Part shown: piece by piece, positions 1,682-59,546 of the stretch
Layout of the letters: each line of letters begins with the position of its first letter
Numbering within the stretch: position 1 is the stretch's first letter
Assembly (NCBI RefSeq): GCF_900215215.1
Contig: NZ_OBDR01000001.1
Span: 310,001-374,000, forward strand
Reading direction: 5' to 3'
Length of the DNA: 64,000 nucleotides
Origin: Methanohalophilus euhalobius
Lineage (GTDB): Archaea > Halobacteriota > Methanosarcinia > Methanosarcinales > Methanosarcinaceae
The notes under the pieces: generated by a model
The model's input: the letters and a program-made list of their open reading frames with translations, nothing else
Databases searched by the model: none
Told to the model about the DNA's origin: nothing
Made by a program: the position numbers and the translations under genes

Positions 1682-1855
1682 ATTTCCCGTAGCATTTTTT
1701 CAGATGTTGTGTAGATGTGGGGTTTTGTCATATAACTTACTGCAAGGGGTTGCAACGAAAATCGGGTCCACAACTGTCCAGGTGCCTGTCAGGAGAGTAT
1801 CCGTTGCGAATATGAATTTCGCTTGTTCCTCTTTTATCATGATAGAGTAAGAATA

Positions 1856-1875
1856 CCACCGTTTTCAAACGGTGG
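1856..1875. repeat. Left-end hairpin of IS copy 1
   Basis: A perfect inverted repeat CCACCGTTT/AAACGGTGG about 18 bases inside the left end, identical to 58303-58322 in copy 2. It is the expected subterminal hairpin bound by TnpA. It also encodes the last residues and TGA stop of tnpA. Confidence 0.85.
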
Positions 1876-2281
1876 ATAAATTACACCCTCTATTGTTGTT
1901 ACCATCTATGTATTTCTGAATCGTTTCAGCAGATACTTGACCGTGTGTTCCTATGTAGTAACTTGGAGACCACAAATGCTTTCCCAAAAATTCTTTTTTT
2001 CGCAGTTCAGGGAATTTTTGAAATATTCTTTTTGTAGTAACGCCTTTCATAATTTTGACAATATCTGTAGGTGCTATGAATGGAGGTGCAGTTATGAAAA
2101 GATGGATATATTCAGGCATAACTTCCAGTTCAAGTATTTCCCATTCTTTAGATTCAGCAATTGTTCTTATCTGGTCATCAAGAAATTGCTTTAATTCATC
2201 ATTCATAACCTGTTTTCGATATTTCGTACACCATACAATATGATAATTAATTTCATATACAGCAGAACTTGAATAAGGCAT
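1865..2281 (-). CDS. tnpA: IS200/IS605 transposase TnpA (Y1 HUH enzyme, degenerate HUH motif)
   Basis: 138-residue transposase of the Y1 HUH family that cuts and rejoins single-stranded transposon ends. The fold is typical: YHIVWCTKYRK near the N-terminus, LWSPSYYIGT, and the nucleophile-bearing helix ETIQKYIDG with its Tyr. The metal-binding motif reads MPEYIHLFI where relatives have DHVHLL-type His-U-His, so the first His is Tyr (codon TAT, one change from CAT). That should weaken or abolish metal binding, and the protein may be inactive. It is transcribed divergently from tnpB across a 53-nt spacer with a duplicated motif. Confidence 0.9.
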   Translation of the reverse strand: MPYSSSAVYEINYHIVWCTKYRKQVMNDELKQFLDDQIRTIAESKEWEILELEVMPEYIHLFITAPPFIAPTDIVKIMKGVTTKRIFQKFPELRKKEFLGKHLWSPSYYIGTHGQVSAETIQKYIDGNNNRGCNLSTV

Positions 2282-2283
2282 AT

Positions 2284-2329
2284 TTACCTATAGGTTCGAA
2301 AAGTATTTAATCATTCCTTACCTATAGGT
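2284..2329. promoter_or_regulatory. Duplicated TTACCTATAGGT motif in the tnpA/tnpB divergent promoter
   Basis: The 12-mer TTACCTATAGGT occurs at 2284-2295 and again at 2318-2329, with a palindromic core CCTATAGG. The two copies fill the spacer between the divergent tnpA and tnpB starts. They may be paired promoter elements or an operator for one regulator. The assignment is inference. Confidence 0.5.
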
Positions 2330-2334
2330 ATTTA

Positions 2335-3417
2335 ATGCAAAAATCATATAAGTTTAGGTTATATCCTACAAAACAACAAGAAATCAAATTGAATAAAACT
2401 CTTGATGTTTGTAGATGTATCTATAATGAATTTCTTGCAGACCGTAGAAATGCATACGAAAGATGTAATTAGGGAATATCTACAATGGAACAATTGTATC
2501 AGGTTCAATACCTTAAATTTGATACAGAAGTACATTCACAAGTCAAGCAGGATGTAATCAGGAGATTAGGAAAATCCTTTGATAGTTTCTTTAGACGATG
2601 TAAGAAAGGAGAGACAAAAGTAGGCTATCCACGTTTCAAAGGTAAAAATAGATATAACAGTTTTACTTATCCTCAATCTGGTTTTAGTATTTCTGGAAAG
2701 AAATTGAAATTATCGAAAATTGGAGAAATTAGGATAGTTCAACATCGGGAAATTGAAGGTAAAATTAAAACTTGTACCATTCGTAGAGATGGAAAACAAT
2801 GGTATGCAACATTTTCTGTTGTAATTAAAAACAATGTAAAACCTGTAGAACCTATTGCCTTCATTGGAATTGATGTGGGACTTAATTCCATTGTAACGTT
2901 AAGTGACGGTGCACAAGTTAATTCTCCAAAATATTATTGCAATACAGAAATAAAATTAAAAAAGCAACAACATGAACTTAGTAGAAAAAAGAAGTTTTCT
3001 AATAACTGGAAAAAGCAATGCGATAAAGTAAACAAATTGCATCGAAAAATACGTAACCAAAGAAATGATTTTAACCATAAGTTAAGTAGAGAATTGATTA
3101 ATGTTTACGATTGTATAGTTTTTGAAGATTTGAATATAAAGGATATGGTAAAAAATTCAAGACTTTCAAAATCTATACATGATGCATCATGGAGTAATCT
3201 AATTCAGTTTACAAAATACAAAGCGGAAGAAGCTGGTAAGTTTGTAAAATTAGTTAACCCATGTAATACATCTCAAATCTGCAGCAATTGTGGTCAAAAC
3301 GTTAAAAAATCATTAGCAACGAGGACACATAATTGCCCCCATTGTGGATTAATTATTGACCGCGACCATAATGCTGCAATTAATATTCTGAATCGTGCTG
3401 TAGGAACTACAGTTTAA
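2335..3417 (+). CDS. tnpB: TnpB RNA-guided nuclease with an in-frame TAG (copy 1)
   Basis: 360-residue TnpB, the RuvC-type RNA-guided nuclease of IS200/IS605 elements. The start is ATG 2335 (MQKSYKFRLYPTKQQE, the canonical TnpB beginning). An in-frame TAG is codon 46 (2470-2472), and the frame then runs open to TAA at 3415. The RuvC acidic residues are present in GIDVGLNS, VFEDLNIKD and DRDHNAAINI, and a CSNCG...CPHCG zinc ribbon precedes the last. The N-terminal 45 residues are family-typical, so translation from the internal ATG 2485 would give a truncated protein. TAG may be decoded as pyrrolysine, or this may be a nonsense allele. The 3' end overlaps the predicted omega RNA. Confidence 0.88.
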
Positions 3418-3488
3418 GCCTGTGGAATTGAACTAATAGGTTCAATAATGAAGCAGGAAGCCACCCTATTCATAGGGCGGTAGTTCAC
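3395..3488 (+). ncRNA. Predicted omega (right-end) RNA scaffold of IS copy 1
   Basis: The region from the last tnpB codons to the right end folds into three hairpins: CTGTAG-gaa-CTACAG (3398-3412), ATTGAAC/GTTCAAT (about 3426-3445) and CCACCCT/AGGGCGG (3461-3480). The same architecture at 59551-59642 has a compensatory T-A to C-G change in the first hairpin. TnpB omega RNAs are known to come from this position, and their guide is the host sequence just outside the right end, here starting around 3489. The exact 5' end is not known. Confidence 0.65.
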
Positions 3489-3634
3489 GCAAGCTATTGA
3501 ATTACCCAAAAAGAATATAGGGCACGTGAGACATTTCAATATAATTTTGCAGAAGGATGCTGCGACCAAATCTTTTTATGTAAATATACTTACTATTGAC
3601 CCTATATCCGATTAAAAAAAAGAAGGCTTATGAG

Positions 3635-5641: not shown

Positions 5642-6430
5642 TTAGTCCTTTTTTGGGACTAACTCTGAATTTTTTTCATACCATTCATAGAGCTTGGTTG
5701 CCCATTCGATGGCTTCTTTTTCTGTACCCATAAGGTAACTGTTGTCATAACGACAGTTATTCAACATAAGGGATAAAAGGAAATATTGGTCAGAAGCAAT
5801 AATTAAGGAGGGCTTAACTTCTCCTTTGTAGATCAATATCCGGGAATTGTCTGAATTTTTGAGTATCCGGGTTGCTTCAGGATAATCATTTTTCATTTTT
5901 TCAAATATCGGTTCTGTCATTATCAACGATAAGTTTGCTCCTTTTGAGGCCATTTCAGAGGCACACGGAGGCTATGCCGGATGATAGACTGCAATAAAAG
6001 CTTTAATCCAGATAGACGCTTTTGTAAGTGGTTTTATTTTTGCGAAAGGATCGAATGCATCAGTAAGTGAAGGTACGATATATTCACTATTATTTAATTC
6101 TCCGATACGGTGCAATAATTCTTTTGGAATAGGAGTTAAATCATGTTCATTTAAATAATCGAAATGATGTTCAAGTACATCAAATGTTTTAAAGACCTCC
6201 TGGAGCATGTGCACCAGCAATATGCCAATTCTGGTTAATGAATACGTACTATTTTCCTGAACTATGAGGCCATTTTCTTTCAATATTTTTATTTGGGGAA
6301 GAATTGAAGGCGAAGTTTCATCAAGAATCTCTTTTATTTCATCAATATCCTTCTTGCCTTCCATAAGCAGGAGAAGAAGGCGCTTACGTTTTTCGGAAAA
6401 ACATGTAATGTCAATAAGTGAGCGCCTCAT
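5642..6430 (-). CDS. DUF1724/FilR1-type winged-helix regulator with an in-frame TAG
   Basis: Archaeal transcription regulator with an N-terminal winged helix (about residues 1-70, EKRKRLLLLLMEGKKDIDE) and a C-terminal DUF1724-like domain, common in methanosarcinal genomes. Codon 153 is TAG (5972-5974). The same frame continues for six codons into the segment starting MASKGANLSLIMTE and runs to TAA at 5642. Read through, the product is 262 residues, the family's usual size. Read as a stop, the ligand domain is cut in the middle. The residue replaced aligns with Tyr in the HPDYP-type motif I recall for the family (here HPA-TAG-PP). Pyrrolysine or a nonsense allele are the alternatives. Confidence 0.82.
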
Positions 6431-58433: not shown

Positions 58434-59546
58434 ATGTTGAAAGCCTACAAATATAGAATGTATCCAACAAAACAGCAAGAAGAAATGTTTAGCAAGCATT
58501 TTGGTTGTGTGAGGGTAATCTATAATTGGGCCTTAGAACAAAAAATTAAATCCTATGAGCAAGACGGAAAAGCAATTTCCAGATTTACATTGAATAAAAC
58601 AATTCCAACATTGTATAAAGATATGGAATGGCTGAAAGAAGTCAATTCACAATCTTTACGTGGAGCTACTCTTAATCTGGATAATGCTTTTACCAGGTTT
58701 TTCCGTGAGAAAACGGGTTTTCCCAAATTTAAATCAAAGAAAAATCCAGTACAATCATTTTCTGTTCCACAATATTATAAAGTGGATTTTGAGACGAATA
58801 AAGTCAAACTTCCCAAAATTGGATGGATTAAAACTAAGTTGCACAGGCACTTTGATGGTAACTTGAAAACCGCAACAGTATCAAAAACATCGTCTGGTAA
58901 ATATTTCATCAGCATTCTTGTAGATGATGGTAAAGAATTACCTGATAAACAGGATTTTGATGAAAATAGTGCGGTTGGTATTGATGTTGGTATCAAAGAT
59001 TTTGCCATCATGTCTAACGGTGAAAAAATAGATAACCCCAGGCATCTTAATAATTCAGTGAAAAGACTGAAGGTATTACAAAAGCGTCTCTCACGAAAAC
59101 AAAGAGGTTCAAAAAATAGAGATAAAGCAAAACAGCAGATAGCCAAACTTCATGAGAAAATAGCAAATCAGAGAAATGATTTTCAGCATAAATTAACTTC
59201 CAGATTAATTAGCGAAAACCAAGCTATTGCACTGGAAACATTAACCGTATCTGGAATGTTGAAAAATCATAAACTTGCACAATCCATTAGTGATGTATCA
59301 TGGAGTTCTTTTGTAACCAAATTGGAATATAAAGCAGAATGGTATGGGAAAAGCATATTGAGAATTGGACAATTTGAACCATCCACGAAAATATGCAATG
59401 TCTGTGGGTATCATAACAACAACATTACACTTGTAGAAAGACAATGGCAATGTCCTGATTGTGGTGCATCCCATGACAGAGATGTCAATGCTGCAATTAA
59501 TATTAAGAAGTTTGCTTTAAATAAACAGAATTTGATAGGTATTTGA
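58434..59546 (+). CDS. tnpB: TnpB RNA-guided nuclease (copy 2), intact
   Basis: 370 residues from ATG 58434 (MLKAYKYRMYPTKQQEEMF). A GTG start six codons earlier is less likely. The RuvC acidic residues are in GIDVGIKDFAIM, ALETLTVSGML and DRDVNAAINI; the zinc ribbon is CNVCG...CPDCG. There is no in-frame TAG, unlike copy 1. The two TnpB proteins are clearly diverged, although their terminal DNA is almost identical. The stop is TGA, and the predicted omega RNA follows at once. Confidence 0.95.
   Translation: MLKAYKYRMYPTKQQEEMFSKHFGCVRVIYNWALEQKIKSYEQDGKAISRFTLNKTIPTLYKDMEWLKEVNSQSLRGATLNLDNAFTRFFREKTGFPKFKSKKNPVQSFSVPQYYKVDFETNKVKLPKIGWIKTKLHRHFDGNLKTATVSKTSSGKYFISILVDDGKELPDKQDFDENSAVGIDVGIKDFAIMSNGEKIDNPRHLNNSVKRLKVLQKRLSRKQRGSKNRDKAKQQIAKLHEKIANQRNDFQHKLTSRLISENQAIALETLTVSGMLKNHKLAQSISDVSWSSFVTKLEYKAEWYGKSILRIGQFEPSTKICNVCGYHNNNITLVERQWQCPDCGASHDRDVNAAINIKKFALNKQNLIGI

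What the first reader, a model, noticed from the sequence alone, without database searches (positions are those of the whole stretch)
2470..2472. In-frame TAG in a transposon-encoded RNA-guided nuclease (TnpB)
The TnpB frame opens at 2335 with a textbook N-terminus, is interrupted once by TAG at codon 46, and stays open to 3417 with all RuvC and zinc residues. If UAG is pyrrolysine here, the nuclease can only be made in full in pyrrolysine-decoding hosts, limiting its spread. The sister TnpB at 58434 has no TAG.
Basis: partly seen in the sequence, partly recalled or inferred. Interest (0 to 1): 0.7.

Follow-up and report, generated by a model that had tools for sequence, protein, structure and literature searches.

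The report
Amber codon inside a methanogen's TnpB
A jumping gene's RNA-guided DNA-cutting enzyme in a salt-loving methanogen (Methanohalophilus) carries one UAG codon, which this microbe can read as the rare amino acid pyrrolysine, and the gene has stayed under selection since gaining it, so it is probably still made at a reduced level rather than simply broken.

Summary
In detail: window 2335-3417 is a TnpB frame with one internal stop, TAG at 2470-2472 (codon 46), and catalytic and zinc residues intact. The host is a Methanohalophilus with pylTSBCD and two mtmB genes that each carry an in-frame TAG, so UAG is decoded as pyrrolysine. Codon 46 is Gln (CAA/CAG) in all sampled near relatives (Methanolobus, Methanosalsum, Methanomethylovorans, most Methanococcoides). 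It is TAG in the Methanohalophilus profundi copy, at a different site, and, apparently independently, in one Methanococcoides copy 65% identical. The codon lies in an inter-helix loop that varies across the family and is Lys in ISDra2 TnpB. Between the two Methanohalophilus copies, tnpB downstream of TAG shows purifying selection (14 N: 17 S; omega about 0.27; P about 0.0003-0.0008). Against a special role: TAG is not enriched among single-stop TnpBs, M. profundi's copy has two frameshifts, and both Methanohalophilus copies share a second nonsense change (TAA, codon 361) at the start of the dispensable tail. Most likely a near-neutral Gln-to-amber change tolerated by partial pyrrolysine readthrough, like the in-frame ambers reported in Methanosarcina transposases. 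Early decay is the main rival. The 'limits its spread' claim is untested and unsupported.

The parts
1838..3488 (.). IS200/IS605-type element carrying the TnpB; conserved from just after TTTAT (1833-1837) to TTCAC
   Evidence: Alignment of 6 copies at unrelated sites: similarity starts at TTTAT and ends at TTCAC in every copy
1833..1837 (+). TTTAT target site / presumed TAM left of the element
   Evidence: TTTAT precedes nearly all sampled copies; matching unoccupied sequence CGCCTGTTCCTTTTTTAT|TCAATAAAG in a relative
1865..2281 (-). tnpA, Y1 transposase, 138 aa, intact, divergent from tnpB
   Evidence: Pfam Y1_Tnp 1.1e-40 over its full length
2304..2311 (+). TATA-box-like TATTTAAT 24-31 nt before ATG 2335, consistent with a leaderless tnpB mRNA
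   Evidence: Sequence; conserved upstream of tnpB in relatives; function inferred
2335..3417 (+). tnpB reading frame, 360 codons plus TAA, with one internal TAG
   Evidence: predicted fold matches ISDra2 TnpB 8h1j, TM 0.85
2470..2472 (+). In-frame TAG, codon 46, replacing Gln; equivalent to ISDra2 Lys48; in the loop between helix 13-44 and helix 50-59
2485..2487 (+). Next in-frame ATG (codon 51); also Met in most close relatives without TAG, so not a newly evolved start
2872..2874 (+). RuvC catalytic Asp180
   Evidence: invariant column in A2; aligned with ISDra2 TnpB
3124..3126 (+). RuvC catalytic Glu264
3364..3366 (+). RuvC catalytic Asp344
3280..3345 (+). Four-cysteine zinc finger (C316, C319, C334, C337)
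3415..3417 (+). TAA at codon 361, a second lineage-specific nonsense change (from CAA) at the start of the C-terminal tail that is dispensable in ISDra2
   Evidence: PMC10097598 and PMC11844463
3460..3488 (+). Right-end hairpin and TTCAC cleavage end; presumed omega-RNA 3' end
   Evidence: conserved in all copies; role inferred from IS605 biology

Best explanation
This is an IS605-type element whose TnpB gained an amber codon (Gln CAG to TAG) in a permissive loop of the REC domain, in a host that decodes UAG as pyrrolysine. Ribosomes reading the probably leaderless mRNA from 2335 stop at UAG part of the time, giving a 45-aa fragment, and insert pyrrolysine part of the time, giving a full-length nuclease core with Pyl46. 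The change is close to neutral: residue 46 varies across the family and is Lys in ISDra2, and low TnpB output suffices or is even welcome. The loss of the C-terminal tail (TAA at codon 361) is also tolerated. Shown: the TAG, the Pyl machinery, ancestral Gln, sharing with M. profundi, and purifying selection downstream of the TAG. Inferred: actual pyrrolysine insertion, its efficiency, and nuclease activity.
For: Pyl genes and tRNA-Pyl and two mtmB genes with one TAG each in the host. Codon 46 is Gln in the close relatives and TAG in both Methanohalophilus copies. Since the shared TAG, codons 47-360 differ by 14 nonsynonymous and 17 synonymous changes, omega about 0.22-0.30 against a neutral N fraction of 0.73-0.79, P 4e-5 to 8e-4 depending on the transition bias assumed. 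A Methanococcoides copy, 65% identical and in a Pyl-decoding host, has TAG at the same codon in an otherwise open frame; if TAGs fell at random over accessible codons, codon 46 would be hit with probability 0.02-0.04. Position 46 is Q, K, E, I or V in wider relatives, aligns with ISDra2 Lys48, and is in an inter-helix loop of the model. ISDra2 TnpB cut at residue 376 still cleaves, so the TAA at 361 need not inactivate. An amber introduced into uidA is read through at 20-30% in M. acetivorans (PMC2933860).
Against: Single-stop TnpBs in the family show no TAG excess: about 5 TAG, 6 TAA, 2 TGA, against an expected TAG share of 0.21-0.46. The M. profundi copy has two 1-base frameshifts and the Methanococcoides copy has its ATG shifted out of frame, leaving only GTG. 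The window copy has a second nonsense change. No special RNA structure follows the TAG (z = -0.36). No protein or RNA data.
Confidence: 0.56

Rival explanations
1. Ordinary early pseudogene: tnpB is dispensable for transposition, the TAG and the tail TAA are the first hits of decay, and TAG rather than TAA or TGA is chance.
For: Two nonsense changes in one lineage; frameshifts in the M. profundi copy; TAA- and TGA-interrupted TnpBs are as common as TAG ones; one TAG-interrupted relative sits in a host where PylS was not found (G149).
Against: Purifying selection on the post-TAG branches. The window copy has no frameshift and no other stop in 360 codons although the TAG predates the split from M. 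profundi. The TAA falls where the functional core ends. TAG recurs at the same codon in a distant lineage.
Confidence: 0.32
2. Internal initiation at ATG 2485 makes an active 310-aa TnpB lacking the first 50 residues.
For: An in-frame ATG lies 12 nt after the TAG and the ORF is open; selection acts downstream of the TAG.
Against: It loses WED strand 1 and all of REC helix 1. No clear Shine-Dalgarno (sequence). The Met is present in relatives without TAG. The Methanococcoides TAG46 copy has no start before codon 82.
Confidence: 0.06
3. Selected switch: the UAG is kept because it ties nuclease level to pyrrolysine supply (methylamine growth) or lowers TnpB dosage.
For: Recurrence of TAG at codon 46 in two lineages; persistence in two Methanohalophilus copies at different sites.
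Against: No TAG excess overall; only two independent occurrences; relatives in Pyl-decoding hosts mostly keep Gln.
Confidence: 0.06

Closest known systems
[quoted passage not shown] mazei (reviewed in PMC2933860; also PMC3639795)
   Same: Transposon gene with a shared in-frame UAG in pyrrolysine-decoding methanogens; highly similar copies in M. burtonii lack the amber although the host has pyl genes
Pyrrolysine in tRNA-His guanylyltransferase of M. acetivorans (Heinemann et al. 2009, cited in PMC2933860)
   Same: An in-frame amber gained in one lineage, translatable and not essential for activity; explained by neutral evolution
   Different: A host housekeeping gene; readthrough examined there by experiment, not here
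ISDra2 TnpB (8h1j, 8exa)
   Same: Same fold and domain order, catalytic and zinc residues
   Different: No stop; Lys48 at the position of the UAG; has the 33-residue C-terminal tail that this one lacks
MtmB/MtbB/MttB methylamine methyltransferases
   Same: In-frame UAG decoded as pyrrolysine in the same hosts
   Different: There the UAG is conserved and the pyrrolysine is functional; here the position is variable and not catalytic

Membership tests
IS200/IS605 TnpB | OrfB_IS605, TNB zinc domain and N-terminal HTH_OrfB domain in one frame | tested here: met
   (all above cut-off with TAG read through)
IS200/IS605 TnpB | RuvC D/E/D and four zinc cysteines | tested here: met
IS200/IS605 TnpB | Y1 transposase in the same element, hairpin ends, constant TAM-like left flank | tested here: met
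IS200/IS605 TnpB | RNA-guided cleavage activity | not testable with these tools
   needs a bench assay
Pyrrolysine-containing protein | Host has pylTSBCD and genes known to use Pyl | tested here: met
Pyrrolysine-containing protein | In-frame TAG conserved across the gene's lineage | tested here: inconclusive
   2 of 2 in Methanohalophilus and 1 in Methanococcoides; Gln in all other close relatives read
Pyrrolysine-containing protein | Protein-coding selection continues after the TAG | tested here: met
   assuming one origin of the shared TAG
Pyrrolysine-containing protein | Pyrrolysine seen in the protein | not testable with these tools
   needs mass spectrometry

The most novel reading that the evidence does not exclude
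Codon 46 of this TnpB clade is a recurrent, selected recoding site: UAG makes production of the RNA-guided nuclease depend on charged tRNA-Pyl, so element homing and maintenance are tied to methylamine metabolism and to pyrrolysine-decoding hosts.
Probability: 0.07. Interest if true: 0.8.

Novelty: new member of a known kind. Interest (0 to 1): 0.38.

Why it matters
If the full-length protein is made, this would be an RNA-guided nuclease carrying the 22nd amino acid; I found no report of one in the held papers. It would be a natural test of how genomes that decode UAG absorb amber mutations: annotation calls such genes broken, while selection here suggests the protein is still made. It also marks a codon where a pyrrolysine-like residue may be put into TnpB without loss of function.

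Tried and rejected
TAG excess among interrupted TnpBs in the family: none. Pyl-insertion-like RNA structure after the TAG: none. More copies in viral contigs (one distant match) and plasmids (best is the M. hollandica copy at 73%): no further TAG copy. M. profundi frameshifts as pure assembly error: partly possible, since extra one-base frameshifts occur in its neighbouring genes against 1-2 in relatives, but the element carries more than that rate predicts. The PylC_N Pfam search of the host was negative, yet a pylC-like frame lies between pylB and pylD in the cluster, so I take the negative as a sensitivity matter. N/S in codons 1-45 between the two TAG copies: a single difference, uninformative. 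Omega along comparisons with the Methanococcoides TAG46 copy stays low (0.12-0.15), but synonymous sites are near saturation and the age of its TAG is unknown.

Full report
Check. The TnpB frame runs from ATG 2335 to TAA 3415-3417 with one TAG at 2470-2472, codon 46. With the TAG read through, Pfam places the N-terminal HTH_OrfB domain (1-43), the OrfB_IS605 domain (163-274) and the zinc TNB domain (286-351) in one frame. Catalytic D180, E264, D344 and cysteines 316, 319, 334, 337 are intact. The sister frame at 58434 has no stop; it is only 38% identical and of another clade.

Host. The window is Methanohalophilus: the same-genus genome G004 holds the copy recovered by name as M. profundi SLHTYRO. 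The host's own genome has tRNA-Pyl (CUA), pylS and pylB-, pylC- and pylD-like genes in one cluster (the last three named from sequence and order) and two mtmB genes with one TAG each. TAG is rarely used as a stop: 3 of 59 long non-overlapping ORFs in the window, one of which is itself an internal TAG in a conserved gene. So UAG is decodable here.

Element. The copy is bounded by TTTAT on the left and TTCAC on the right, with end hairpins and an intact divergent Y1 transposase. The TTTAT flank matches unoccupied sequence in a relative. Copies in Methanolobus, Methanosalsum and Methanomethylovorans lie at unrelated sites with the same ends.

History of codon 46. It is CAA or CAG (Gln) in all Methanolobus, Methanosalsum and Methanomethylovorans copies read and in the Methanococcoides copies read except one. 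It is TAG in the window and in M. profundi, whose copy sits elsewhere in its genome. One Methanococcoides-type copy (L104; genus inferred from the genus group g3), 65% identical to the window's, has TAG at exactly codon 46 and a TGA in its tail close to where the window's copy has TAA; its host also has PylS. If TAGs struck accessible codons at random, hitting codon 46 has probability 0.02-0.04 for one independent TAG copy. This is suggestive, not proof, since a few other TAG copies with TAG elsewhere (codons 16, 55, 303, and 107 in a host where PylS was not found) were also seen.

Second nonsense. In relatives the frame runs on past codon 361 into the right-end hairpin. The window and M. profundi share CAA to TAA at codon 361. 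In ISDra2 TnpB a protein cut at residue 376 still cleaves, and stops after 376 are not depleted in a mutational scan (PMC10097598, PMC11844463). By the alignment, codon 361 sits at that boundary, so the loss can be tolerated.

Selection after the TAG. Assuming one origin of the shared TAG, all differences between the window and M. profundi copies arose after it. In codons 47-360 there are 14 nonsynonymous and 17 synonymous changes, omega about 0.22-0.30, against a neutral expectation of 73-79% nonsynonymous (P 4e-5 to 8e-4). tnpA over the same time gives 9:4, not different from neutral. So the product downstream of the TAG was still under selection for at least part of that time. The M. profundi copy has since gained two 1-base frameshifts, which may be decay or in part assembly error.

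Position. The model (mean pLDDT 84; best match ISDra2 TnpB 8h1j, TM 0.85) puts residue 46 in a loop between helices 13-44 and 50-59. The column is Q, K, E, I or V in the wider family and aligns with ISDra2 Lys48. A lysine derivative there is plausible.

Alternatives. Internal initiation at 2485 would delete WED strand 1 and REC helix 1, lacks a clear Shine-Dalgarno, and is not available in L104, whose next start is codon 82. A TATA-like box 24-31 nt before ATG 2335, conserved in relatives, suggests a leaderless mRNA starting at 2335 (inference). Simple early decay remains a serious rival: TAG is not over-represented among single-stop TnpBs (about 5 TAG, 6 TAA, 2 TGA; expected TAG share 0.21-0.46).

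Comparison. Methanosarcina transposases with a conserved in-frame amber have been reported, with amber-less sister copies in M. burtonii; an amber gained in M. acetivorans tRNA-His guanylyltransferase was explained by neutral evolution; and an introduced amber is read through at 20-30% in M. acetivorans (PMC2933860; PMC3639795). I found no paper in the held library that describes an amber-containing TnpB, but that library is partial. The case is best filed as a new member of that known kind, in a new type of gene.

Spread. The close copies (62% identity or more) whose hosts were checked sit in Pyl-decoding hosts whether or not they carry TAG, so the claim that the TAG limits spread cannot be seen in these data.

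Noticed in passing
window 5642-6430 (-), TAG at 5972-5974: A FilR1-type winged-helix regulator (PF08350, 2.5e-26) has an in-frame TAG at codon 153 where Methanohalophilus relatives have TAT (Tyr) or TGT (Cys) and read on to the same C-terminus; a second candidate incidental pyrrolysine codon in the same window.
   Followed up: partly
window 1815-3490: Three relatives carry about 1.7 kb here with a roughly 490-aa protein that looks like a sodium/solute symporter (named from its sequence); in the window most of it is missing and the TnpB element sits in its place, as if a deletion ran up to the element on the left, with about 50 bp also lost on the right. G001 has a different truncation of the same gene.
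   Followed up: partly
L104 / L171 (G071 C1:75330-76418): tnpB-only element (no tnpA found in the flanks) with TAG at codon 46, ATG shifted out of frame with GTG left as start, and TGA in the tail.
   Followed up: partly
L047 / L154 (M. profundi SLHTYRO): Extra one-base frameshifts in genes at the orthologous locus and 89% completeness in 4 contigs suggest indel errors in this public assembly.
   Followed up: no
G000 C13:223, C15:69122, C19:50288 (L005, L007, L008): Three TnpB C-terminal stretches with the same score at contig ends: a repeated TnpB element probably breaks the assembly.
   Followed up: no
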